From the NCBI GenBank assembly GCA_027923505.1, contig BROI01000037.1:141490-205489 (forward strand): a stretch of 64,000 nt of DNA. The letters run 5' to 3'. This DNA is from Mayamaea pseudoterrestris. Taxonomy: Eukaryota > Bacillariophyta > Bacillariophyceae > Sellaphorales > Sellaphoraceae. The position numbers and the translations under genes were made by a program. Below, in pieces: positions 45,608 through 64,000 of the stretch. Numbering within the stretch: the stretch's first letter is position 1; each line of letters begins with the position of its first letter. Under the pieces are notes generated by a model. It made no database searches, had not been told where the DNA came from, and saw only the letters and a program-made list of their open reading frames with translations.

Positions 45608-45981
45608 GTTAAGTTTAATTTTTTTCCAGTCTCATCCACACCATCATCACGAGTCGCAGTCTCTGTTGCCGATACCGGTAAGGATTTGGCGACTGATGAC
45701 ATGCGTTGGTAAAAGCGCTACCGGCGCGCTTTCAAACGCCTTCAACGGTTTGAACGTTTTGTTGCAGGTATGAAAAAAAATGTCTATTCACGACAAAGTA
45801 CTATAGCCCGTAAATATATCAGTCGTGCGCAACGCGGCGGACAGACTTGTTCTGCGAAACAACCATCCGACCGAACCATGAGCAACTTCGTATGCGTCAT
45901 TTGCAGCAAGATCAGCGGAAGAGCATCAAAAGCTTTAGAGACGATAGTAGATCTCTAAACATATAAAAATCTTGTGAAAGA
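45608..45981. other. Divergent promoter region
   Basis: 374 bp between the sulfotransferase and cysteine synthase-like genes. A 62-codon frame at 45770 has no recognisable content. Confidence 0.5.
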
Positions 45982-47502
45982 ATGGAAGCAAGAACACGAA
46001 CGCCAATCGGGCCTCTCATCGTCAAATCTGCCTCCATGATCGTCGCAGCTGGGTGCGCTTGGTACTTCTACCAACGTAAAGGTTCCATTTGCTACAACCA
46101 GTCGCGCCAAAGGCGCAAACAAAATCATCAAGAAGATTCCATCACGTCGGCTTACGAATCACTGATTGGAGACACGCCCATGATTGAGCTGCAGCACTTG
46201 TCGCGCTTGCTCAAGCGACGAATATTCGTCAAACTGGAACACTTGAATCCAGGAGGGACGGGCAAGGATCGAGCCGCCCGCAGCATGATTTTGGCAGCGG
46301 AACGACAAGGTGCCTTGCCGGTATATGAAGCGAGTCATGAACTGGACGATGTGTCTGGCACGAGGTTTTGCATATCAACAACTGTGACGAGCACGGCAGC
46401 GCGTTGTAATCCATTGCAAGGCGACAATCAACCTGAAACGAGTAATGTAATAAATGCGTCTATCAGTATTAAAGATGCTTCATCAGTTTTCATGGACAAA
46501 ACTATGGACGCTGCAATTCAAAAAGCAGTGGCATATATGCCAACGTCGATTACAAAATGCGGCATGATTGTGGAAGGAACGTCGGGATCCACTGGAATAT
46601 CGTTGGCTGCACTGGCCCGCTGTCGCAACCACGCCTGCATTGTCGTCTTGCCAGACGACCAAGCTTCCGAGAAACGAGTCGTTTTGGAAGCCTTAAGTGC
46701 CGTCGTGTTGGTGGTGCCGACGCACAGCATTTCGCATCCGCACCATTACGTGAATGTGGCACGGAAGCTTGCCGAGCGAGCGCGACTAAAATACAAGCTT
46801 CAGGCGGTGTTCATGGATCAGTTTGACAACTTGGCCAATTTCCAGGTACATTATGATGAGACTGGACCGGAAGTGTGGGAGCAGTGTCAGCGAAATATAC
46901 AAGCTGTTTGTCTTTCCGCAGGAACGGGAGGTACGATTGCCGGCGTTGGCCAATATTTGAAGCAAGCATGTCCATCCATTCGCATTGTTTTGGTGGATCC
47001 GCCGGGGAGCTCGCTGTATCACAAGATTGTGCATGGAGTTTGCTTTGCGCCCCAGCAGTCTGAAAGAACATTGCAGCGACATAGATACGATACCTTGGCG
47101 GAAGGAATTGGACTGGACCGTGTCACGCGCAACCTACAAGCCGGCTTGGATGCGATTGACAGTGCCATTCAGGTATCCGATCAGGAGGCTTTGGACATGG
47201 CGCATTGGTTGCTGCGAAAGGAAGGTTTGTGGGTGGGTTCGAGCTCGGCCATGAATGTTGTAGGAGCCGTCCGCACTGCCATGGAGTTGCCGGAAGCGTC
47301 CAAGATTGTCACATTTGTTTGTGATTCCGGTCAACGGCATGTTACTCGATTCTGGAACCGAGATTTCGTTATAAGCCGAGGATTGGAGTGGCCAGGAGAT
47401 GTTTCATCTCCGTTAGAGTCATCTCTAGAAAGGTTGTCTGACTGCTTACGTGAGGCTTTGGTAAATGACAAGAGAATAAGTACGCTAGAGGACAACCAAT
47501 AA
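45982..47502 (+). CDS. Cysteine synthase homologue, MCY1-like, membrane-anchored
   Basis: 506 residues, fold type II PLP enzyme. Residues 11-30 form a hydrophobic N-terminal anchor, as in yeast MCY1. 'LIGDTPMIEL' and 'LNPGGTGKDRAA' (PLP lysine K95), 'GTSGSTGIS' near 196, and 'SAGTGGTIAG' near 313 define the family. It should make cysteine from O-acetylserine and sulfide at the mitochondrial outer membrane, by analogy. An insert of about 75 residues (residues ~113-190) separates the PLP lysine region from the substrate loop; canonical enzymes lack it. The gene is convergent with MSH2, and the young copia element sits between them. Confidence 0.85.
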   Translation: MEARTRTPIGPLIVKSASMIVAAGCAWYFYQRKGSICYNQSRQRRKQNHQEDSITSAYESLIGDTPMIELQHLSRLLKRRIFVKLEHLNPGGTGKDRAARSMILAAERQGALPVYEASHELDDVSGTRFCISTTVTSTAARCNPLQGDNQPETSNVINASISIKDASSVFMDKTMDAAIQKAVAYMPTSITKCGMIVEGTSGSTGISLAALARCRNHACIVVLPDDQASEKRVVLEALSAVVLVVPTHSISHPHHYVNVARKLAERARLKYKLQAVFMDQFDNLANFQVHYDETGPEVWEQCQRNIQAVCLSAGTGGTIAGVGQYLKQACPSIRIVLVDPPGSSLYHKIVHGVCFAPQQSERTLQRHRYDTLAEGIGLDRVTRNLQAGLDAIDSAIQVSDQEALDMAHWLLRKEGLWVGSSSAMNVVGAVRTAMELPEASKIVTFVCDSGQRHVTRFWNRDFVISRGLEWPGDVSSPLESSLERLSDCLREALVNDKRISTLEDNQ

Positions 47503-47574
47503 GTTGTCTTAGTGTTTTGTTTACTGGTATAGGGTAAATGGCTGCTACCACCATATGGCGAAGTTGCACGCATC

Positions 47575-47579
47575 AAGCT
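47575..47579. repeat. Target-site duplication AAGCT (left)
   Basis: Matches 54451-54455 right after the 3' LTR. In the uninterrupted sequence, on the minus strand, these bases and the two that follow spell the last Ala codons and the TGA stop of MSH2. Confidence 0.95.
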
Positions 47580-47933
47580 TGTCAGCCGATTACATGATTG
47601 AATACTCGAATGCTCTTGTCGCATGCGACATGAGCTATACATCAATACCTGGCTCGTGTGTGAATCGCCTGTTAATTAAGGACGATCGCCTGTTGGATCT
47701 ATTCAACGGGAGCACATGGACAGTTACATACAAAATTAGCGGACGCTACAGGATTAGCAGACTGTAGCGGGTAACTCACTTTCTATAGTATCACGTTGTT
47801 TTACCGACGTTGTAGATTGTGCCTCTTGCAATACGAGAGCAGTAAAGGAGAAGTGCACATCTCTGGTCTGCTTAAGGATTGTACAGAGGATTGAAGACCA
47901 CTGTCGAGCATCTTGCAAAGAGGCCGTGTGACA
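47580..47933 (+). repeat. 5' LTR
   Basis: 354 bp, identical by eye to the 3' LTR. Starts TGTCAGCC and ends GTGTGACA. No TATA box or CRE is obvious. Confidence 0.95.
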
Positions 47934-47955
47934 GATCAACAGTCTTGGTTGTACC
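47934..47955 (+). other. Probable primer-binding site
   Basis: 'gatcaacagtcttgg' directly follows the 5' LTR and is shared, with minor change, by the second element at 58711. The tRNA (perhaps an internal half-tRNA) is not identified. Confidence 0.5.
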
Positions 47956-48117
47956 CTGCAAAGTGAAGCTTTGGACGCAAGGCATCACCTTCCTTCCCTC
48001 AAAACTTCTTCGCAGTCGACGAGAGCAGCAACTCTCGAGGCAGCATAAAGCAGAAGCACCTTAAAGTAAAGGGGTCTGCGATCGGATCGACTTGCAAGCG
48101 TTCCATAAACTGCAAAG

Positions 48118-50646
48118 ATGGCTCCAAGTACACGGAGCAACTTCCTCAAGATGGGCTTGTCGGCAATGATGAATCTGGCCGACGATGCAACGTATGACGC
48201 TCATAGCATCGTCACGACTCTCCAGTCGATCGGTGTAAATGATCGCGAGTCCCTCATGCTCGTTACCGATGCTGATATCAAGGGTCTCCATTTCTCGCCG
48301 CCAGAGGAGAACATGGTTCTTCGCATCAAGAAGTGGGCGGTCGGCAAGGATAAAGCAGCCGACTGGGCGACTCTGACGATCGACAAGCTTATCAGCGAAA
48401 CAAGCGATAGCGTGGCGACTCCATCGGCGACAAGCACGAGTCGTTCCTTCGAGAGCCGAATCAAAGTTGATATGAACGCGTATAAGGAGCTCAAGGACGA
48501 CAGTCGCTTCCGCGTATGGAATCGAGAGACGCTGATGGCAGCGTATATGCATGGACTCTCCGACATCTTCGACGAGAAGGTTGTCGCTCCGACTGACGCA
48601 GATGGCTTGAAGGAATGGAACTTAAAGCAGAGCGTCGTCATGAGCATCTTCGTTAACACCTTGAAGACGGCGAAATCGCTGCAGATCCTCCGCAAGCACT
48701 TAAACAATCGAACGGCAAAGGCGTGCTATCAGGAGCTAGTCACCGAGTATTGCAAAGGAACGTTCGGAAAGATCCAAGTGCGTAAGGCAGAGAAAACGTT
48801 GCGCGACTTCAAGTTCGATGAATCCAAGTCCCATATGAGCTTCGTTACTGGCTGGCTGAACAAGCTCAAGGATTATGAAGAGATCAAGGATGCGCCCGCG
48901 TCTGATGGAGACAAGCTCGAGTGGTTTACCGACGCGCTGCAAGCAAGCGACGCGCTCCGTGCTGTTATTGATACAACCACCGTGCAAGATCAGCGTGATG
49001 GCAAAGATACCGACTTCAACACCCTGATTACGCTCGTCTCGAGCATGGCGATCTCCAAGGACTCGTATGCTTCGATTACCAAGAGCAAGCTTAAAGCGAA
49101 TCAAGCTGAAACTGGAACTCCAAGCGCTAAGAAGAGCGGCGGCGGCGGTGGTCGTGGCGCCGGGCGTGGAGGAGCTGGTCGAGGCATGCAGAATCCCGGC
49201 CGCGGCACTGGTCGTGGCGGAGGCCGAGGCCAAGGCGGACAGCAGCGTCAAGCGAATGAAGCAGCAAGCAGTACAGCTCAGTTGCCTGCGGTATCGTCTG
49301 AAGTATGGGCGACCATGGACCAAGCAGCTCGAGCGCCGTACATCCGTCAAGCTCGTGAGCGTCGTCAGCAGCGCACTCATCAAGCGGCAAACCAGGCGCA
49401 GTCAAGCGGCGGCAACGGCAATCCGAACATTGCGACCATTCAGTTCGTTAATGAACCAAACCATTCGACGGCAATGTCGGCTGTTACGCAGCAGACTCAG
49501 CCTCCGCAGCAGCAGCAACCCGCGCAGCAGCAGCGAGGATACGCCGCGCGTCAATTCCTTTCGAACGACCAAGCATCGGTTGCTCAATCCAGTCAGCAGT
49601 CGCAGCAACCGGAGCATACCATCATGATGGGGAATCAGCGTTATCACATGTACCGTGCGAACGCTTGTCGGCTCAAGTATCGCATCAGTCGCTCGAGCGT
49701 GGGCGCTGATGACTCGTTGATTGATCGAGGCGCAAACGGCGGCCTCTGGGGATCCGAGGGTCGTGTACTTGACGTATCAACCTTCCACACCGTCGATATT
49801 ACTGGTATTGACAAGCATGTGAAGAAGGGCGTGCCACTTGGAATGGTGGCCGGAAAGATTGTCAGCGTGGAGGGTGAGCAAATCATCGCCATCTTCAACA
49901 ATTACGCCATTGGAGGCAGCGGAGCGACGATTCACGCAGCCATTCAGCTCGAGGACTTTGGACATGAGGTCTTTGATAAGGTATCAGGCGTTGGAGGACT
50001 GCAGTTAATGAAGCTCTCTGATGGAACCATTGTCCCCTTTAGCGTGGTTAATGGATTGGTCCAACTCGCGATGGCTAATTTTACCGACGACGAATTTAAT
50101 AGCCTCCGCTACGTTATGATGACGTTGGATGCTCCCTGGGATCCGTCAAAGTACGACAATGTGCTTGATGAGCAGGTTGCGAAGGACGCTGCAGAGTCGC
50201 TCGACCATGACGCTTCAACCATTGTGATGAGCAACGTCTCTAACCCCGGTCGACCAAACGATTTGCAGTCGTATCTCGAGTCTTTATCCTGCCCTTTGAG
50301 CAACTACGACCGCACGTCGTATACATTGTCCGAAGCGGATCATTCTATCGCTGGAAACGGAGTGGGCGCGACTCATTCAAGTGGACAGCTGCAAGTTGAT
50401 TCTTCTGTCGTCGACAGCAATCAAGTCAATAACACGGAGACTGAACTCGACGCGGACGACGATAGCGTTCCTCCATTGGTCGCGCGCGATGCAAACGATG
50501 ATTCTACCGCTGGCGGGTCCCGCGGCGACGACGAGTCAATCGCTAGCCACGGCAGCAACGACAGCGACGAATGGTTTGACGCTGAGGAAGATCTATTTTT
50601 CGAGTATGGGGAGACAATGAACAAGTCTTCTCTACGCATGATTTAA
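48118..50646 (+). CDS. Retrotransposon gag and protease
   Basis: 842 codons. Residues 1-330 form helical gag, residues ~340-378 a Gly/Arg-rich RGG box (the site where a CCHC zinc knuckle is expected), then a Gln-rich stretch. The protease begins near residue 530 with 'LIDRGANGGLWG', in which Arg replaces the usual Ser/Thr after the catalytic Asp. The frame stops at 50646; integrase continues in the -1 frame, so a 1-base loss or frameshifting separates them. Confidence 0.85.
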   Translation: MAPSTRSNFLKMGLSAMMNLADDATYDAHSIVTTLQSIGVNDRESLMLVTDADIKGLHFSPPEENMVLRIKKWAVGKDKAADWATLTIDKLISETSDSVATPSATSTSRSFESRIKVDMNAYKELKDDSRFRVWNRETLMAAYMHGLSDIFDEKVVAPTDADGLKEWNLKQSVVMSIFVNTLKTAKSLQILRKHLNNRTAKACYQELVTEYCKGTFGKIQVRKAEKTLRDFKFDESKSHMSFVTGWLNKLKDYEEIKDAPASDGDKLEWFTDALQASDALRAVIDTTTVQDQRDGKDTDFNTLITLVSSMAISKDSYASITKSKLKANQAETGTPSAKKSGGGGGRGAGRGGAGRGMQNPGRGTGRGGGRGQGGQQRQANEAASSTAQLPAVSSEVWATMDQAARAPYIRQARERRQQRTHQAANQAQSSGGNGNPNIATIQFVNEPNHSTAMSAVTQQTQPPQQQQPAQQQRGYAARQFLSNDQASVAQSSQQSQQPEHTIMMGNQRYHMYRANACRLKYRISRSSVGADDSLIDRGANGGLWGSEGRVLDVSTFHTVDITGIDKHVKKGVPLGMVAGKIVSVEGEQIIAIFNNYAIGGSGATIHAAIQLEDFGHEVFDKVSGVGGLQLMKLSDGTIVPFSVVNGLVQLAMANFTDDEFNSLRYVMMTLDAPWDPSKYDNVLDEQVAKDAAESLDHDASTIVMSNVSNPGRPNDLQSYLESLSCPLSNYDRTSYTLSEADHSIAGNGVGATHSSGQLQVDSSVVDSNQVNNTETELDADDDSVPPLVARDANDDSTAGGSRGDDESIASHGSNDSDEWFDAEEDLFFEYGETMNKSSLRMI

Positions 50647-50663
50647 ACGTTTACCAGGCAACG

Positions 50664-52454
50664 ATGGAAGCTGGCAACACGACGGCATACATCAATCTTG
50701 CCGCTCGTCCTGCTCGATCCATCTTGCCTGCTCGCCCCGACTACGACGCTTTGCGCCCGTACTTCGCGTGGATTCCAATCAATCGTATCAAGGAAACTCT
50801 AAAGAATACAACGCAGTTTTATCGTGCGGAGAACCGTCATCCTATGCGGCGCCATTATCGGACGCGTTTCCCTGGAGCCAACGTTAATCGTCTGGCGGAG
50901 ACGGTCGCTACCGACACCATTTTCTCTGATGTGCCTGCTATTGACGACGGTATTCCCGGTCATGGAGGTTGCACGATGGCACAACTGTACGTTGGTCTTG
51001 AGAGTCGATTGATTGAGGTATACCCCATGCGGAGCAAAGGACAGTTGCCGAGCACGTTGATGAAATTCATAAGCGAACGAGGCGCTCCACTCGAGCTCTT
51101 CTCTGACTGCGCTAAGGAAGCTTGCAGCAAGGAAGTTGAGGAAATCCTTCGTATGATGATGATTCGGCGTCATAAACGCAGCAAGCCATACCAACAGAAC
51201 CAAGATCCCGCGGAGCGCGCCATTGGCGACGTCGAGCGCCAAGTGAATGTCGTCATGGATCGTACTGGGACACCAGCTCCATTCTGGTTGCTTTGTACGC
51301 TGTACATTGCGAGTCTCTTTTGCGTTCTTTCCCAAGCTTCTTTACAAGGGAAGACTGCCTTTCAGCATACTACTGGCCAAGTCCCAGACATTTCGCCCTA
51401 CTTGAATTACCATTGGTGGGAGCGCGTCTCTTTCCTTGACGACAATCCCGACAAGATGACTGATAGCATGCAACGCGCTGGTCGTTTTGTTGGCGTTGCA
51501 AAGGATGTGGGCGACCATTTAACTTATTGGATCCTTGATGAGGAGACGATGAAGGTCATTCCTCGGTCTGTTGTTGCAAAGCGCGACGATCCTGCAAACC
51601 CCAATCTCCGGCTCGATACGCCGACTGTTTCTGCTACTGCAGATGGGGAGGCATTCGTTTACACGCAAGACGGCATCATTGAAGCGTTTAACTTGAGTGA
51701 TAAAGACGAAGAGTCTCCAGTAACAGACAGCGGCGAGCGCTCCCCGGGTGAAACCGTCGCGAGCGACGAGTCGAGAAATCCTTTGAGCAATCCTAATCGT
51801 CCTCAAACTCGCTCACAAACTAAAGCAAATCCTTCTCCAAGCAATCGTCCCAAGTTGCCTTACTTTTCACCTGAAGATTTGATTGATCGGTCCTTTCTAT
51901 ACGACGCTCCAAACGGGCAACGCCTTCGAGCCGTCGTCAAACGCAAGCTAGACACGTTGGACGCTCAGAATCATCAAAACATTAAGTTCATTTTGCATCT
52001 TGGTAAAGAAGAAGCGGAGGAGGTGATTGATTACGTTAAATTGAACGACATCTTCGAGGCTCTTGTGCTGGATGAGGTAGCTAACCCTCAAGCGTGGCCG
52101 ACTTACAAAGAAATCCTTTCCCACGCTGGTCCGTACACAAACCGGTCCCCTGAGTGGCGTGGAAGCAAGTTTAACGTGTTGGTATTATGGGACGATGGCG
52201 AGGACATGAATCAATTTGGCAAAGATGATCCCGTAGCTGCGCCGACTATGCTCGAGACCATGGGCTGCTTGAGACGGATGGATGGAAGTTTCTGCAGAAG
52301 CATGCGCGGGAGACAAGCTCCTTACGCAAGATCAAAGCAGCGAAGTCAGCTCAATCAAAACGCGGTCCACGCTACAAGTTTGACGTCCGTATCCCTCGCG
52401 ACTGGCGTGAAGCTCGTTCCTTTTCAAGGAAGCTGGCCATACCAAGTGGACTGA
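50664..52454 (+). CDS. Retrotransposon integrase (frame-broken at the C-terminus)
   Basis: The integrase core has 'TDTIFSD', 'LFSDCAKEA' and 'DPAERAIGD', a plausible D-D-E set, followed by a copia linker. From about 52262 the true frame moves to the -1 frame, and again about 52437, so the last 60 codons here are out of frame. The correct reading continues into RT. Confidence 0.8.
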   Translation: MEAGNTTAYINLAARPARSILPARPDYDALRPYFAWIPINRIKETLKNTTQFYRAENRHPMRRHYRTRFPGANVNRLAETVATDTIFSDVPAIDDGIPGHGGCTMAQLYVGLESRLIEVYPMRSKGQLPSTLMKFISERGAPLELFSDCAKEACSKEVEEILRMMMIRRHKRSKPYQQNQDPAERAIGDVERQVNVVMDRTGTPAPFWLLCTLYIASLFCVLSQASLQGKTAFQHTTGQVPDISPYLNYHWWERVSFLDDNPDKMTDSMQRAGRFVGVAKDVGDHLTYWILDEETMKVIPRSVVAKRDDPANPNLRLDTPTVSATADGEAFVYTQDGIIEAFNLSDKDEESPVTDSGERSPGETVASDESRNPLSNPNRPQTRSQTKANPSPSNRPKLPYFSPEDLIDRSFLYDAPNGQRLRAVVKRKLDTLDAQNHQNIKFILHLGKEEAEEVIDYVKLNDIFEALVLDEVANPQAWPTYKEILSHAGPYTNRSPEWRGSKFNVLVLWDDGEDMNQFGKDDPVAAPTMLETMGCLRRMDGSFCRSMRGRQAPYARSKQRSQLNQNAVHATSLTSVSLATGVKLVPFQGSWPYQVD

Positions 52455-54090
52455 TGCGGAGCAAGTTGAAATTGACAATCTATTTGAGTACGATACGTTT
52501 AAAGACCTCGGTAAAGGCGACAAGCAACCGAAGGGGCATCAAAAGATCCGCACCATTTGGGTCTACGATTGCAAACATGACTTTCGCCATCGAGCAAGGA
52601 TGGTGGCTGGAGGGCACTTGACGCCCGAGGCAGACGATGCTTACTCGAGCGTCGTATCATTGGAGATTATGCGCTACGCGTTGGTGATTGGAGAGCTGAA
52701 TGGACTCAAGCCCATGGTCGGCGACATCGGCAATGCGTATCTCGAGGCGTACACTAAAGAGAAAGTTTATTTCGTCGCTGGTCCTGAGTTCGGCCATCTT
52801 GAAGGGCATTCCCTGCTCATTGTCAAAGCTCTATACGGTCTGCGAACTAGCGGAGCTCGTTTCCATGAGCGTCTAGCCGATGCTCTGCGTGACGAAGGAT
52901 TCAAACCTTCGCTGGCGGATCCCGACCTGTGGTTGCGAGACACTGGCGATTGCTACGAGTATATATGCGTCTGGGTTGACGACTTGCTTGCCATTCTGAA
53001 GGATCCAGAGGCGTTTTACGAGGCGCTGCGCAGCAAGTATCAGTTCAAATTGAAAGGCGTCGGGCAACCCGAGTATCATCTTGGAGGCAACTTCGGTCGC
53101 GATCCTGATGGTACGCTCTATTGGGGAGCTCGCACGTACGTTGAAAAGCTTCTCGGCAATTACGAGCGCATGTTTGGCGGTCCTCCAAAGAAGTATTCTT
53201 CGCCGCTCGACAAGGACGACCATCCTGAGTTGGATCAGTCGCCATTACTGCGCGCTGATGGAGTCAAGATGTATCAATCGCTCGTCGGAGCGCTGCAGTG
53301 GGCAATTACTTTGGCACGATTCGATATCGCATGCGGAGTTGCTTGCTTATCTCGCTTTCGAGCGGAGCCTCGTGAGGGGCATCTTGATCGAGTCAAGCGC
53401 GTTTGTGGCTACTTGCGTAATCATCCTGACGCTGCGATTCGCTTCCGAGTTAACTGGCCTGAAAACGAGGCAATCTTTGGAGAGCAACCCGAGTTTGATT
53501 GGATGTATAGCGTCTACGGGGAGCCCGCGGAGGATGAGCTTGCTTTATATCCTCCACCAAAGGGAAGAATGGTGCGTCTGACGACATGGAAAGACGCCAA
53601 TTTAATGCACTGCAAAGTAACTGGCAAATCTTGCAGCGGCATTCTTCATTTCATTAACCAAACGCCCGTCAAGTGGTTCTCCAAGTTACAAGATACAGTG
53701 GAGGCGGCAACGTTTGGATCTGAGTCAATGAGTGGACGCATTGCTACCGACCATATCATCGGGATGCGCGCGTCGCTCAAGGCGATGGGTGTGCCTATAG
53801 AGAAGACCAGCTGGATGCTTGGAGACAACCAGTCGGTAATCACTCAAAGCACAATCCCTAGCTCAACACTTACAAAGCGTCACAATGCTCTGGCCTACCA
53901 TCGGATTCGCTGGGCGGTGGCGACTAAGGTAATCAAGTTCGTCAAGGTCGACGGTAAGGAAAACGTCGCAGACCCTCTGACCAAGTACATGAATTACACT
54001 GAGTCAATGCCTTTGATCAAGCCTCTGTTATTCTGGAGAGGAGAGACTTTGATTGAAGGAGATTTGGGAGCTGGCAGCCGATCTGCTTAA
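52438..54090 (+). CDS. Retrotransposon reverse transcriptase and RNase H
   Basis: About 550 codons. RT motifs include 'ARMVAGGHLTPEADD', 'LKPMVGDIGNAYLEA', 'VKALYGLRTSGARFHE' and the active site 'VWVDDLLAIL' (Trp instead of Tyr before VDD). RNase H follows ('KDANLMHCKVTG', 'ESMSGRIATD', 'LGDNQSV', 'KRHNALAYHRI'). Complete through its stop 7 bp before the LTR. Confidence 0.88.
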   Translation, partial: HTKWTDAEQVEIDNLFEYDTFKDLGKGDKQPKGHQKIRTIWVYDCKHDFRHRARMVAGGHLTPEADDAYSSVVSLEIMRYALVIGELNGLKPMVGDIGNAYLEAYTKEKVYFVAGPEFGHLEGHSLLIVKALYGLRTSGARFHERLADALRDEGFKPSLADPDLWLRDTGDCYEYICVWVDDLLAILKDPEAFYEALRSKYQFKLKGVGQPEYHLGGNFGRDPDGTLYWGARTYVEKLLGNYERMFGGPPKKYSSPLDKDDHPELDQSPLLRADGVKMYQSLVGALQWAITLARFDIACGVACLSRFRAEPREGHLDRVKRVCGYLRNHPDAAIRFRVNWPENEAIFGEQPEFDWMYSVYGEPAEDELALYPPPKGRMVRLTTWKDANLMHCKVTGKSCSGILHFINQTPVKWFSKLQDTVEAATFGSESMSGRIATDHIIGMRASLKAMGVPIEKTSWMLGDNQSVITQSTIPSSTLTKRHNALAYHRIRWAVATKVIKFVKVDGKENVADPLTKYMNYTESMPLIKPLLFWRGETLIEGDLGAGSRSA

Positions 54091-54096
54091 GCGGAG

Positions 54097-54450
54097 TGTC
54101 AGCCGATTACATGATTGAATACTCGAATGCTCTTGTCGCATGCGACATGAGCTATACATCAATACCTGGCTCGTGTGTGAATCGCCTGTTAATTAAGGAC
54201 GATCGCCTGTTGGATCTATTCAACGGGAGCACATGGACAGTTACATACAAAATTAGCGGACGCTACAGGATTAGCAGACTGTAGCGGGTAACTCACTTTC
54301 TATAGTATCACGTTGTTTTACCGACGTTGTAGATTGTGCCTCTTGCAATACGAGAGCAGTAAAGGAGAAGTGCACATCTCTGGTCTGCTTAAGGATTGTA
54401 CAGAGGATTGAAGACCACTGTCGAGCATCTTGCAAAGAGGCCGTGTGACA
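54097..54450 (+). repeat. 3' LTR, encodes the new MSH2 C-terminus on the opposite strand
   Basis: Identical by eye to the 5' LTR, followed by AAGCT (54451-54455). The last 62 bp, read on the minus strand, supply 20 codons and a TAA (54389-54391) to MSH2. Confidence 0.95.
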
Positions 54451-57124
54451 AAGCTGCCTCCAACGCGCTCATAACGGCAGCCTTCTTCTCGTCCTCCGAA
54501 GCATACTCTCGTGACAGCAAGTCCTTCAAATTGATCTGACGCAAACGCTTTACAAATGCAGTGTCAGCCGCGACAGACTCGGCTTGATCATGATCGTCGA
54601 CGGCGTAGCCGCTATTGACAACGCTGCTGGGACTGCTTTCCGACGACTGCCGTTTCTTTGTGTATTGAAAATTCTCCAACTCTTTCGCCTTAATTTTAGC
54701 GTCTTCAATCACCACAGAAGGTACGTTGGCCATTTTAGCAACTTGAATGCCAAAGCTTTCAAGGCACGGACCTGGTTTGACTTCGTAAAGAAAGGTCAAG
54801 CCATGATCACCCTTCTTCGCAGTAACATGATAGTTCTTGACAACATGCTTACAATCTTCGAGTGCCGTCAGCTCGTGAAAGTGTGTCGTAAACACCGTCA
54901 TGCAGCCAATCGTGTCGACTATGTATTCACTAATCGCTCGCGCCAAACCATATCCGTCGAAAGTTGACGTTCCTCGTCCAAGCTCATCAATCATGATCAA
55001 ACTTCGCTTGGTCGCGCGACGTAAAATAGATGACGACTCAAGCATTTCAGCCATAAAGGTGCTGATTCCGCGTTCCTGCAAGTCACCCGCACCAACGCGG
55101 GCCAAAATGTCGTGGCAAATGTTCATTTTGGCAGATGCGCACGGCACATACGCGCCAACTTGTGCGAGCGCAACAATGGCACCGAGCGAGCGAATATAGA
55201 CGGATTTTCCGCCCATATTTGGTCCTGTAATGAGCAGAAAGGACTGCTCACCGTATACAAGGCGAATGTCGTTGGGGATAAAGTCGACGCCGTCCTGGAG
55301 CTCGACGCACGGGTGGCGGGCCGCTTTCAAAACAATGCCAGTTCCGTCGTCCTCATTGTCCGTCAATTCCGGTCGAACGTAGTTACTGTATGCTGCAATA
55401 TGGGAAAAGCCAACAATAACATCCAAAGTCGCGACCAGTTGACTGGCATGAGACAGCACGTCGACATAGCTGGCCGCCGCCTGCATGGCTTGCATGGCTA
55501 GTTGGCGCTGGTACTTGTCATACTCATTTTTCAAATCTTGCTTGCGACTTGCTAGTCCACGAAGTTCCTTGGTTGTAAAGTAGACTCCATTCTTCAAGAT
55601 TCGCGAAACCTGGACGCGAATCTGCGTCGTTGCCTCGAGCAGCTTCAAGTCATTGGCATCGGCGAGTCGAAACTGAAACTCACCATCATTCGAGTTTCGG
55701 TCCAACTTGACGGCGTTTCGCTTTCCCGAAATGTTTGCCCAGGTTTCGTTCATTTGCTCCAAGCATTCCTGCACCTGCGTTTCCAATTCATTCAGCTCGT
55801 CATACACTTGCTCCAGCTCCGGCTTGTAGCCGGGTCGAAGTCGATATTCGCGGGGAGCAGCGTCCAAGTCAACAACATCTTCGGCTAGCTGACTCGCAAG
55901 AACCAAATCTTGTTCACACTGCTCAAGGCCATGCAGCAGCGTTACGAGCAGACTGGGCGGCACAGCAGTTTCATCGTTGTGAGAATGATGTAACGTCGAC
56001 GGATCGTCCGATAATGCCACTTGCAAGCGATCCCGGAGCAATGGAACTCGTTGTGATGCCACTAGCCAAAGTTTGTACATGGCCTGCAGCGCCTTGGTCG
56101 TTGGCCCCAACGGCATGCTCGCGCCAATGTCATTGACGCTTCCATCATGCACTGACGACGCCGCATCACTATCAATCTCATCATCAATACTAGTATACAT
56201 TTCCAGCTGCTTGGCCAAGCCATCCAGATCAATGGCAGCAAATCCCGCCAAACCTTCCTGTTTGAGTGCATCGCGCGCAATGTTTCGCTGCAGCAACCAC
56301 GCCACCGCCTCCTGTCGCTCCAGTATTTGCTCCAACTGCACCAGCGGCTGCTGCAACCACGTGGCCAGTCGCAGCTTGCCCACGTGCGTCTGCAGTGGCT
56401 GTCTCAACAATCCAAAGAGACTCGCGTTGCTCGCGCTGCTGAAAGCTCCCACTTGATCGGCAATGTGCGACGGCGGCCATAAATGAATGGCTTCGCACGC
56501 CGTCTTGTCGAGTGACAGAAACGACGGCAGTTTGCCCACGTCAATCTCCAGCGCCAGTGACGACTGCTCCGTTTGCGTCGCGCTGAAATAGAATTCGAGA
56601 CTAGTCGAAAGGTGCGTCGTTTCCGACGAGTGCAGCAAGGATGACAAATCGGAGTGCGCGCCAACGGAGAGGGCGGCTTGGCGCGACAAGCGATGCGCCA
56701 AGGTTTGCGACAAGTTGCATTTGCTTTTGGGTAGTGTTTCGTGGAAGCGAATCGTCACGTCGAGAGCAGGTGGTCCGTCGATGGCTTGCATGCTGTCATT
56801 GTTTTCGTCATTGTCTTGCGATTGCGTAACGAGTATTTGCTGCAACACTTGCTCGAGCGCTCCCAACGCTCGCTGCTTGACTTGCTTCTCGGCTGCAACG
56901 TGAATGCATGAAACGTCAAAATCTGCTTGCTGCAACAGTGCCTGAAGATGAGTGTAGGCCGCTGGATGATCAATGAAGGAGTAGCATCGCAAGGACTGCG
57001 TGGACGAATTCACTGCGGAATCACATTCGCGCCAAAGCGTCAGCTGGACGGCATGGGCGCAGTTTGGATCGGTCATTCCCGATAAGGACTTGTAGCGGGA
57101 GACGTAGAGTGTAACTGCTGTCAT
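54389..57124 (-). CDS. MSH2: DNA mismatch repair protein MSH2, stop codon replaced by LTR
   Basis: 911 residues from the ATG at 57124 (an upstream ATG adds 26). The ABC ATPase has Walker A 'GPNMGGKSVYIRSLG', the signature region 'ARVGAGDLQERGISTFMAEM', Walker B 'LIMIDELGRGTSTFDG' and 'VFTTHFHELTALE', all typical of MSH2. Its upstream lever/clamp region is present. The native end was 'MSALEAA' and TGA; the copia insertion splits that TGA, so translation continues 20 codons into the LTR to a TAA. Walker A has Val where Thr is usual after GKS. The protein recognises mismatches with MSH3/MSH6. Single exon. Confidence 0.95.
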   Translation of the reverse strand: MTAVTLYVSRYKSLSGMTDPNCAHAVQLTLWRECDSAVNSSTQSLRCYSFIDHPAAYTHLQALLQQADFDVSCIHVAAEKQVKQRALGALEQVLQQILVTQSQDNDENNDSMQAIDGPPALDVTIRFHETLPKSKCNLSQTLAHRLSRQAALSVGAHSDLSSLLHSSETTHLSTSLEFYFSATQTEQSSLALEIDVGKLPSFLSLDKTACEAIHLWPPSHIADQVGAFSSASNASLFGLLRQPLQTHVGKLRLATWLQQPLVQLEQILERQEAVAWLLQRNIARDALKQEGLAGFAAIDLDGLAKQLEMYTSIDDEIDSDAASSVHDGSVNDIGASMPLGPTTKALQAMYKLWLVASQRVPLLRDRLQVALSDDPSTLHHSHNDETAVPPSLLVTLLHGLEQCEQDLVLASQLAEDVVDLDAAPREYRLRPGYKPELEQVYDELNELETQVQECLEQMNETWANISGKRNAVKLDRNSNDGEFQFRLADANDLKLLEATTQIRVQVSRILKNGVYFTTKELRGLASRKQDLKNEYDKYQRQLAMQAMQAAASYVDVLSHASQLVATLDVIVGFSHIAAYSNYVRPELTDNEDDGTGIVLKAARHPCVELQDGVDFIPNDIRLVYGEQSFLLITGPNMGGKSVYIRSLGAIVALAQVGAYVPCASAKMNICHDILARVGAGDLQERGISTFMAEMLESSSILRRATKRSLIMIDELGRGTSTFDGYGLARAISEYIVDTIGCMTVFTTHFHELTALEDCKHVVKNYHVTAKKGDHGLTFLYEVKPGPCLESFGIQVAKMANVPSVVIEDAKIKAKELENFQYTKKRQSSESSPSSVVNSGYAVDDHDQAESVAADTAFVKRLRQINLKDLLSREYASEDEKKAAVMSALEAALSHGLFARCSTVVFNPLYNP

Positions 57125-57592
57125 GATGATGAAGTTGGTACAGACAAAATGGAGGTGCAAGGATGCTAACTGTGGCTCGCAGTTTTTGCATTCTTGCATC
57201 ATTGCATTGGATGAGGCGAATGAACGGAAACCGCTACGACAGCTTCAGCTATCGCGACATTATTACCCTCCTCCTATCCACTACTATCATTCACCGCATC
57301 GCTCCCAGCCACCCGACTGGCATGAGTCTCTTTGTACGTTGAACTGTTTGTCTCGAGTGTCTGCTGTAGTACTGTACAGTACCTTGGGGCGGGCTTTTGA
57401 ACCATCAGAATATTCGCTTGCTTTTACATCAATCATTCTACGATAGACTTTTCAAACCTTTTGCCGTTGCATTCCAACGTGAATCACGTCTTTTCAAGTC
57501 CGACCCCGGCCTCTCGGTGCTTTGCTGTGCGCTTGTTTTTGTTTTGCCTAACTGTAACTTTCATCAAAATAAAATCATCAAGGTACTTCACC
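57125..57592. other. Divergent promoter region
   Basis: 468 bp between MSH2 and the truncated gene on the plus strand. Open frames here are short and I call none. Confidence 0.5.
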
Positions 57593-60699: not shown

Positions 60700-63600
60700 T
60701 CCGGCAACCGAAGGGCCACACACGTCACAGTTCCATGTCACTGGTCCATTACGTCCCGAAGCCCGTCCATGATGGATCGCGGTGCCAACGGTTCGTCGCT
60801 GGAGGAGATGATTTGCTTGGATCGTCGACGACCAGTTTGCAGACGTTACCGGAATTGACAATCACATGGCAAGGACTACCCCGGAACATTCGCCGCCAAG
60901 ATCTGGACGACGGAAGGGTACGTCATTGGCATTTTCTACCAGTACGCCGACGGAGGAACCGACGCAACCATTCCTCGGTCGTTCAGCTCGAGGACTTCGG
61001 AAACAAGGTATTCGAGCAAGGCAAGCGCACTTGGCGGACGGCAGCTCATGTACACCCGAAGGAGCATTGATCCCATTCACGGTCCAGAACGGTTTGGTCC
61101 ATTTGAAGATGCATCATTTCACCGACGCCCGAGTTCGACACGTTGCCGCACGTCGTCATGACAGCAGACACGCCTTGGGATCCGTCAATCGATGGAGACC
61201 TTAATGACAGTCGATCCAAGCGGAAATTGAAACCACGCGACGGACGATCACGGCGCCAACACTACTAGTCAACAACACCAAGTCAACGGAAACGCGCAAG
61301 ACGAATATCCCGAAGACCTTTCAGTCAAAACACTCAACGTCGTCTCATGGAACGGATTCCGAAACCCACGAATGGGAGCACTTCAGCGACGAGTCGGACC
61401 CTATACAAGTCGAAACCGGGTCCATCCGAGCGCGTTGAGCCGACATTGTACCCGACGACGCTTCTTACAACACGAACCCACAACAGGACGACATTTCACT
61501 ACCCTCACTACTTTCACGCGGAACCATATCGACATCCGGATCAAGCCATGCTCCGAATCCCAACGACGCAACGTTCGAATCTGAAGACATTGCCGGGAAA
61601 TGCGATCCGTACGAGCTGCAGGTCAATGCCGCAATTGTAGAAGCTGGAGGCAATCCATATTCTGGACTAGCCGGCCGACCAGCGCACGCTGTGGTTCCTA
61701 CGCGACCAGATTACCAAATGCTCCGTCCCAACTTGATTTCTACCCACCGATCCGTATCAAAGAGACTCTCAAGAACACTACCCAATTCTATCACGCCGAG
61801 CAACGTTTTCCTCAGCGACGCCATTTGCGTACTTCGTTTCCCGGTGCGAATGTTTCCGACTACCTGAAGAAGTTGCAATGGACACACTATTCTCCGACAC
61901 ACCCGCACTCAACGATGGTATTCCTGGACATGCCGGATGCCAAGCAGCGCAACTATACGTTTGCATGCAGAGCCGATTGATTCGCGTCTGCCGATGGCGA
62001 ACAAGGGACAAGTTCCGTCGACGCTCATGCAGTTTATCAACGATTGCGGTGCTCCACCGGTCTAATATCAGACGGAGCCAAGGAAGAAAACAGCCTGGCG
62101 AGCGAATCGAACGCCAGTTTATGATCCGTAAGCACTGGGTCAGCGAACCGGAAAACCAACAGCAGAATCCAGCGGAACGCGTTATCGGCGACGTCGGCGC
62201 GCACTGTCAATGTCAACATGGATCGAACCGGATCGCCTGCACCAACCTGGCTGCTATGCACTCTACATCGTAGCTCTGCTCGCCCTCATGTCCCGGTCAC
62301 GTCTTCTGGTGGCATGACCCCATATCAAAAGGTATATAATGAAGTACCCAATATCTCTGCCTACCTCAACTACCACTGGTGGCAGCCCGTTCGATACAGC
62401 GCAAACTCTACATCGCTCAACCAAACCAATGAGCGCGCTGGACGCTCGTCGGGTAGCTGATAACGTCGGTGATGCTCTAACGCTACTGGGTCTTGGACGA
62501 GGAAACACATCAAGTTGTCGCCCAAAGCATTGTAACGCTCGTCGAGACGATCTTAATCCAAACATCCGTCTTGATTTACCAAGTCGAAGCTTCTCCCGAA
62601 GCGCGTGTTAGTATACCCGAAGGTGGAACTCAAGAGAGCTTCCAACTCGGCACCCAAAGCTCCGAAGAAGAGGGGCTACCCACTGATGAACCCGTTCCTA
62701 CTGAAACGGCGACGACGGACCCAGTTCGCCCGGAGATGAACCATTCGTCGGAGCAGTCCCACCAGCGGCCGCCATCAGCCCGTCCTCAAGCGCATCCACG
62801 CGGACCAATCGATTACTACCTGCATTCTCACCTGAAGAACTTTACAATAAGCGTTTACTCGGCATACTCAGGATGGGTGGCTCCATGGAGCGGCGAATGG
62901 TTCACAAGCTCGAAACCATGGACGCAGCCAACCATCATAACATCAAGTTCCTACTCCAATCGGCGAAAACGAAGCTGAAGAAGTCATCGATTACATCCGA
63001 CTCTGCGAATTGTTCGAAAAGGACCAAGCAGCAAAGGTAAGCGATCCTGAACACAACTGGACGTTTAAAGCAATCCTATGATCTAAGGGCCACTCGCCAG
63101 CAATCCAACGGATGGAAAGGCTCCATGTATAACATCAAAGTCGTGTGGGAAGAGCACCAACTCGCGACTTGGGAGCCTTTGAACGCTGCTTAGCGACGAC
63201 ATCATTTCCTGCGCACTACGCCCGGCGAACGGTGGGTCACTACTCAACAAGAAAGGCTGGAAGTTCCTACTTGACGCAGCCCGACGCGCACGTAGTCGCC
63301 CGTCGAACCGTAAAGCCAACGACGCAGCACCCGTGCACGTTCGGCGTCAGGTACCACGATCCAAAGGGCTTCGAAAGTTCCAAGAAGAACTCCGGCATAC
63401 CAAATGGACCGACGCGGAGAAGGTAGAGCTGTCAAGCCTGTTCGATCACGACACCTTCATTGATCTCGGATTGAATGCCGCGCCTCCCGAAGGCTATCAA
63501 AAGATTCGCACTATCTGGGTCTGCGACTGCAAGCAAGACTTTCGTTCACAAGGCTCGGATGGTTGCGGTGGACACCTTACTGATCCTGTCGACGACTCAT

Positions 63601-64000
63601 ACTCGAAGCGTCGTTTCACTGGAATCGCTGCGCCTAGCGCTGGCGATAGGGAGTTGAATGGACTCACTCCCATGGTAGCGACATCGAAATGCTTACCTCG
63701 AAGCAAAACCAAGAAAAGATTTACTTCATCGCTGGACCTGAGTTCGGCGACTTGGAAAACCACACACTCATCATCTACAAAGCACTCTACGGCTCCGCAG
63801 AACAAGGCACGATTCCCGACCGCTCTGAAAACGGAAGGCTTCAAAGCCTGTCGCCCGATCACGTTTGGATTCGTGCTGGCCATTCTTGAATACTTTCACT
63901 GTCACCGACGCCTGCTAATGATTGCCCGGGCGCATTCTACGACATTCTTCGCAACAAGTACAAGTTCAAGCTCAAACGTCGGATGCCCAGAGTACCATCT
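60700..64000 (+). pseudogene. Pol of the second element, many frame breaks
   Basis: Protease motif 'MMDRGANGS' at 60769-60795; integrase pieces 'YPPIRIKETLKNTTQFY', 'MDTLFSDTPALNDG' and 'NPAERVIGDV'; RT pieces 'RTIWVCDCKQDF', 'EKIYFIAGPEFGDLEN' and 'LIIYKALYG' at the right end. Segments align to the first element in shifting frames with few stop codons inside segments. Confidence 0.78.

What the first reader, a model, noticed from the sequence alone, without database searches (positions are those of the whole stretch)
54389..54455. A retrotransposon inserted inside the stop codon of MSH2 and gave it a 20-residue LTR-coded tail
Direct reading: 5-bp AAGCT duplications flank the element. On the MSH2 strand the left half of the pre-insertion site gives ...GCA GCT T and the right half GA, so the native stop was TGA. 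After insertion, T is followed by the LTR's TG, and the frame continues 20 codons to a TAA within the LTR. The gene therefore escapes disruption but has a new C-terminus and a new 3' end; its native 3' UTR is 6.9 kb away. MSH2's C-terminus helps dimerise with partner MSH proteins, so an effect on mismatch repair and mutation rate is conceivable (inference).
Basis: partly seen in the sequence, partly recalled or inferred. Interest (0 to 1): 0.88.

Follow-up and report, generated by a model that had tools for sequence, protein, structure and literature searches.

The report
Retrotransposon in a diatom's MSH2 stop
In a diatom genome a recently inserted jumping element splits the stop codon of the DNA-repair gene MSH2, so the gene is predicted to read on into the element and gain a 20-amino-acid tail; whether this alters repair is untested and a mild or no effect seems most likely.

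Summary
A 6,871-bp Ty1/copia-type element (47580-54450, + strand) has two identical 354-bp LTRs and a 5-bp AAGCT duplication. It sits after the T of the TGA stop of MSH2 (- strand). Joined flanks give ...MSALEAA-TGA. With the element, T joins the LTR's TG (TTG, Leu) and the frame runs 20 codons to TAA at 54389-54391. The 25 relatives with a complete C-terminus (19 groups at 85% identity) end 2 residues before to 12 after the inferred native end; none carries the tail. A structure model ends its last helix at the native terminus and leaves the tail unstructured. MSH2 is otherwise intact, with one match in the assembly. The insertion looks young (0 of 354 LTR differences). In the empty site only 70 bp separate the MSH2 stop from that of a convergent gene; a ~20-codon tail is about what chance gives. 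Unproven: transcription, translation of the tail, zygosity, any effect on repair. I expect a tolerated or mildly impaired allele; a mutator effect is possible, since MSH6 but no MSH3 was found as partner. An interesting case of a known kind.

The parts
47580..54450 (+). LTR retrotransposon of the Ty1/copia type, 6,871 bp, antisense to MSH2
   Evidence: LTR pair, TG...CA ends, 5-bp target duplication; RVT_2 domain in the 3' ORF
47580..47933 (+). 5' LTR, 354 bp
   Evidence: identical to the 3' LTR
54097..54450 (+). 3' LTR, 354 bp; its antisense strand codes the MSH2 tail
47575..47579 (.). target-site duplication AAGCT, copy on the far side; its first base with 47573-47574 makes the native TGA of MSH2 on the - strand
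54451..54455 (.). target-site duplication AAGCT, copy on the MSH2 side; 54451 is the T of the split stop codon (- strand)
54452..57202 (-). MSH2, native sense codons (917 residues from the first ATG; N-termini of relatives suggest a start nearer 57124)
   Evidence: MutS_V, MutS_III, MutS_IV; best solved match human MSH2; 25 relatives compared at the C-terminus
54389..54451 (-). 20-codon extension LSHGLFARCSTVVFNPLYNP plus TAA stop, read from the antisense strand of the 3' LTR (first base from the native stop)
45967..47502 (+). convergent pyridoxal-phosphate-dependent enzyme gene (PALP), as a stop-to-stop frame; in the empty site its stop lies 70 bp from the MSH2 stop
   Evidence: PF00291; gap computed

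Best explanation
A copia-type retrotransposon of a small family of this diatom inserted recently, antisense to MSH2, between the first and second base of its TGA stop codon. Because LTRs begin with TG, the split stop became TTG and translation is predicted to run 20 codons into the antisense 3' LTR and stop at its TAA. The gene also lost its native 3' flank and must form its transcript end inside the element. SHOWN: insertion, target duplication, loss of the stop, open extension, native end in relatives, intact MSH2 motifs, one match in the assembly. INFERRED: that the extended protein is made, that it is largely functional because the tail hangs off the end of the last helix, and that the allele persists because it is tolerated, very recent, or accompanied by an empty allele in a diploid.
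For: Identical LTRs and perfect 5-bp duplication; joined flanks restore a TGA directly after ALEAA; 25 of 25 relatives with a complete C-terminus end 2 residues before to 12 after that point, 19 groups at 85% identity (of 26 relatives with the ATPase motif one, P0076, was dropped for lacking the C-terminal region); the closest relative P0002 (57% identity) ends ALELSV; last predicted helix 903-919 against native end 917, block pLDDT 81 and 72 before, 34 and 30 in the tail; Walker and signature motifs present; one match for MSH2 in the 30.6-Mb assembly. An older copy in the same genome also has a 5-bp duplication, GAGCC.
Against: No transcript, peptide or read data, so neither expression nor zygosity is known. 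The tail is more hydrophobic (Kyte-Doolittle +0.39) than the last 20 residues of each of 25 relatives (mean -0.46, maximum +0.18) and than the window's own native last 20 (-0.60), a trait tied to degradation of human stop-loss proteins (PMC12817085, abstract and passages). Low model confidence in the tail is expected for any sequence without homologues. An intact frame says little about function if the insertion is very recent.
Confidence: 0.72

Rival explanations
1. Impaired allele: the hydrophobic tail or the lost 3' UTR lowers MSH2 level or dimerisation, giving a natural partial mismatch-repair defect (mutator).
For: Tail hydropathy above that of each of 25 relatives; hydrophobic extensions are linked with degradation in human stop-loss variants (PMC12817085, passages); the assembly shows MSH6 but no MSH3 among six MutS_V loci, so no second MSH2 mismatch-repair partner was found. 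Mismatch repair corrects errors 50- to 130-fold in the eukaryotes measured (PMC8156620, passages).
Against: Tail lies beyond the last helix; relatives' C-terminal tips differ in length by up to 14 residues; MSH2 frame and motifs intact. A raised mutation rate was not sought.
Confidence: 0.2
2. Heterozygous insertion: the assembly shows one haplotype, the other carries the empty site, and the tail has little consequence for the cell. (Compatible with the best explanation.)
For: In Phaeodactylum tricornutum many transposable-element insertions are in one haplotype only, with the other allele empty (PMC2806351, passages).
Against: One MSH2 match in the assembly, which a collapsed assembly would show in any case; no reads available.
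Confidence: 0.4
3. Transcript-level effect dominates: MSH2 RNA has no good end signal in the antisense LTR, or LTR-driven antisense RNA across MSH2 lowers its expression; the tail is rarely made.
For: The native 3' flank is 6.9 kb away; no AATAAA or ATTAAA in the antisense LTR; the 3' LTR points into MSH2 antisense.
Against: Which 3'-end signals this diatom uses is unknown here; LTR promoter activity was not tested.
Confidence: 0.2
4. Assembly error joins an element to MSH2.
For: No reads could be examined.
Against: Exact LTR termini and a matching 5-bp duplication on both sides, and flanks that restore a stop where relatives stop, are very unlikely from a misjoin.
Confidence: 0.03

Closest known systems
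Diatom copia (CoDi) LTR retrotransposon insertions, e.g. Blackbeard in P. tricornutum (PMC2806351, passages)
   Same: Ty1/copia-type element, TG/CA ends, short target duplication, recent insertion in a diatom
   Different: Per the passages, none of the polymorphic insertion sites that they cloned lay inside genes; here the element splits a stop codon. CoDi subgroup was not tested.
Stop-loss variants with C-terminal extensions (human; PMC12817085, abstract and passages)
   Same: Stop codon lost, in-frame extension to the next stop; 20 codons here against a random expectation of 21.3 given there
   Different: Caused by an LTR element rather than a point change; extension and 3' end are supplied by the transposon; consequences unmeasured
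MSH2 of other diatoms (P0087 Cylindrotheca closterium, P0089 Nitzschia inconspicua; unnamed P0002)
   Same: MSH2 core, same C-terminal helix end, no MutS_I domain listed
   Different: Only the window's MSH2 carries the LTR tail

Membership tests
Ty1/copia LTR retrotransposon | paired LTRs with TG...CA ends | tested here: met
   354-bp identical LTRs, TGTCAG...GTGACA
Ty1/copia LTR retrotransposon | short target-site duplication | tested here: met
   AAGCT both sides; GAGCC in the C27 copy
Ty1/copia LTR retrotransposon | copia-type reverse transcriptase (RVT_2) | tested here: met
   PF07727, 6.2e-21, 75.6 bits, cut-off 31.6
Ty1/copia LTR retrotransposon | integrase upstream of reverse transcriptase | tested here: inconclusive
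   the 622-aa ORF at 50586-52454 had no Pfam hit at 0.001; not searched further
CoDi (diatom copia) groups | placement in a CoDi lineage by RT phylogeny | not tested
   one search gave 1,766 RT homologues among 8,000 scored candidates; of the 120 listed none is named CoDi (most have no name); no tree was built
MSH2 | closer to MSH2 than to MSH3, MSH6 or other MutS paralogues | tested here: met
   364.6 bits to human MSH2 against 198.8 for the best bacterial MutS, 185.5 for MSH3 and 167.8 for MSH6
MSH2 | MutS core domains III, IV, V | tested here: met
MSH2 | MutS domain I (usual in MSH2 elsewhere; I do not hold it to be required) | tested here: not met
   no PF01624 in the protein nor on this contig; none listed for P0002 and P0057-P0092 either
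Stop-loss with C-terminal extension | native stop lost and in-frame downstream stop present | tested here: met
Stop-loss with C-terminal extension | extended protein is produced | not testable with these tools
   needs RNA and peptide data

The most novel reading that the evidence does not exclude
The insertion makes a naturally impaired MSH2 allele in a lineage whose only detected MSH2 mismatch-repair partner is MSH6, so a transposon has turned this diatom strain into a mutator, which could in turn speed its adaptation and the change of its genome.
Probability: 0.12. Interest if true: 0.8.

Novelty: new member of a known kind. Interest (0 to 1): 0.42.

Why it matters
It is a clean natural case of a transposon supplying both the last residues and the 3' end of a genome-maintenance gene. 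It also shows a simple rule: since LTRs of this type begin with TG on either strand, an element that lands inside a stop codon destroys it (T|TG Leu, TA|T Tyr, TG|T Cys), in either orientation. If the allele weakens MSH2, the strain would be a ready-made natural diatom mutator to compare with a measured diatom mutation rate (PMC6604790, abstract and passages).

Tried and rejected
Considered and rejected: (1) A longer native C-terminus cut off by the element: the joined flanks stop at once and 25 relatives end near there. (2) A second, intact MSH2 elsewhere in the assembly: one match only. (3) A special selection for the stop codon: the 20-codon length is near the random expectation of 21.3 codons (PMC12817085, passages); other phases would give 59 or 44 residues antisense, and 5, 62 or 7 sense. 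The insertion lies at the edge of a 70-bp gap between two stop codons, so tolerance of insertions in gaps explains much of it (inference). The finding was picked for its look, so its rarity was not tested. (4) Species name: paper searches for a diatom assembly of 41 contigs (two listings, neither fitting) or 30.6 Mb (none) gave nothing; that the window is a diatom rests on the named relatives.

Led nowhere: paper searches on an LTR element or transposon in a stop codon and on diatom MSH2 showed no matching report in their listings; they cover only the open-licence library. PMC3848065 (passages) spoke of bacterial MutS, not of the MSH2 tip. The structural comparison mostly stopped at model residue 776 or 777, a few rows reaching 849 to 897, so the role of the C-terminal helix at the dimer interface was not tested. 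Missing MSH3 rests on a six-frame search without regard to introns and is not proof. Both MSH2 protein searches scored only 8,000 candidates, so relatives were missed. One 5-residue word of the tail, GLFAR, also occurs in a bacterial hit, P0056; I take it for chance. Whether the three frames of the element's ORFs are programmed or damage was not settled; ORFs of the C27 copy were only listed.

Full report
WHAT IS THERE. The window is from a genome of 30.6 Mb in 41 contigs. A 6,871-bp LTR retrotransposon occupies 47580-54450 on the + strand. Its LTRs (47580-47933, 54097-54450) are 354 bp and identical, start TG and end CA, and are flanked by AAGCT on both sides. The ORF next to the 3' LTR carries the copia-type reverse transcriptase RVT_2. 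The gene on the other strand, ending at 54389, is MSH2: MutS_V, MutS_III and MutS_IV, and among solved structures it matches human MSH2 best (364.6 bits, against 198.8 for the best bacterial MutS, 185.5 for MSH3 and 167.8 for MSH6).

THE SPLIT STOP CODON. On the - strand the gene reads GCA GCT T, and the LTR then supplies TG, so the codon is TTG. The frame goes on for LSHGLFARCSTVVFNPLYNP, whose first residue is that TTG, and stops at TAA (54389-54391). Joining the two flanks with one copy of AAGCT gives GCA GCT TGA.

WAS THAT REALLY THE NATIVE END? Two protein searches (each scored only 8,000 candidates) found an unnamed metagenomic protein, P0002, 57% identical over nearly the full length; the second added relatives that include Cylindrotheca closterium, Nitzschia inconspicua and marine transcriptome proteins. 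Of 38 sequences taken into (the window's own, P0002 and P0057-P0092), 27 hold the ATPase motif, i.e. 26 relatives; P0076 lacks the C-terminal region. The other 25 (19 groups at 85% identity) end 2 residues before to 12 residues after the inferred native end, and none has the tail. P0002 ends ALELSV where the window would end ALEAA. The inferred native stop is well supported, and the C-terminal tip is naturally variable, which argues for tolerance.

THE TAIL. AlphaFold2 on a 26-sequence alignment (mean pLDDT 75.5, pTM 0.71) ends the last helix at residue 919, against a native end at 917; residues 921-937 are below pLDDT 50. Low confidence is expected for a sequence without homologues, so this only says that nothing ordered is predicted. 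The tail is more hydrophobic (+0.39) than the last 20 residues of each of the 25 relatives (mean -0.46, maximum +0.18) and than the window's own native last 20 (-0.60). In a study of human stop-loss variants greater hydrophobicity of extensions goes with degradation and with harm (PMC12817085; abstract and passages). This is the main argument for an impaired allele. Human and diatom quality control may differ (inference).

WHERE IT LANDED. The neighbour at 45967-47502 is a convergent pyridoxal-phosphate enzyme gene (PF00291). In the empty site only 70 bp lie between its stop and that of MSH2. The element thus sits at the very edge of a small intergenic gap; an insertion a few bases further on would have left both proteins unchanged. 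An LTR element with TG...CA ends that lands inside a stop codon abolishes it; the length of the tail is then set by chance (one search gives 20 and 44 residues for the two antisense phases inside the codon, 62 and 7 for sense).

AGE AND FAMILY. With 0 of 354 LTR differences, and using the P. tricornutum rate of 4.77e-10 per site per generation (PMC6604790; abstract and passages), the 95% upper bound is roughly 9 million generations (my arithmetic; another species' rate, and lower if repair is impaired). The family is small: seven LTR matches in the assembly, two of them the window's own. The copy on C27 has LTRs that differ at 5 of 354 sites, a GAGCC duplication, and its two parts lie apart, as if split by a further insertion. 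The LTRs on C17 and C10 are identical to the window's, yet the C17 internal part is only about 97% identical by blastn, 91%. In P. tricornutum many such insertions are heterozygous (PMC2806351; passages), so an empty allele is quite possible here.

PARTNERS. Six MutS_V loci were found in the assembly: MSH2; an exon on C3 closest to MSH6; one on C8 that I read as MSH4-like from its sequence (recalled; the solved-structure search, ranked bacterial MutS first); one on C3 with MutS_I and a C-terminal stretch that I read as GIY-YIG, hence MSH1-like (recalled; sequence, MutS_I; not searched against solved structures); and two closest to MutS2. No MSH3 was seen. MutS_I was found at two places only, near the MSH6 exon and in the MSH1-like gene. 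If the MSH2-MSH6 pair suffers, no other MSH2-based mismatch-recognition pair was found.

VERDICT. Observation confirmed; mechanism of the stop loss clear. The biological effect is open; a tolerated or mildly impaired, possibly heterozygous allele is most likely. It is a new case of a known kind of event (a transposon insertion altering a gene's end), in a gene where a consequence would matter.

Noticed in passing
54389-57202 (-) and genome loci: This diatom's MSH2 lacks MutS domain I; rows for human MSH2 in the structural comparison begin at its residues 124 to 149, apart from one that begins at 298, and P0002 and P0057-P0092 list no MutS_I either, nor does the Aphanomyces hit P0094. No MSH3 was found. 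I recall that yeast MSH2 without domain I loses mainly MSH3-dependent repair, so joint loss of MSH3 and of MSH2 domain I would be coherent and worth a proper survey.
   Followed up: partly
45967-47502 (+) and 47573-47575: Convergent PALP-family gene with only 70 bp between its stop and the native MSH2 stop; the element now separates the pair by 6.9 kb.
   Followed up: yes
48109-54090 (+): The element's coding region is spread over three overlapping ORFs in different frames (48109-50646, 50586-52454, 52411-54090); whether by design or damage was not settled.
   Followed up: no
about 60923-61188 and 63487-63754: Further copia-like matches to the element (68% and 76%) upstream of MSH2, pointing to a decayed relative on that side.
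   Followed up: no
L026, L027: LTRs identical to the window's on C17 and C10 although internal parts diverge or break off (C10 identical over LTR plus 300 bp, then interrupted), suggesting recombination or nested insertion between family copies.
   Followed up: partly
L033, L037 (C3 about 1.40 Mb, outside the window): A MutS gene with MutS_I and a C-terminal stretch that looks like GIY-YIG, resembling plant-type MSH1 (recalled).
   Followed up: partly
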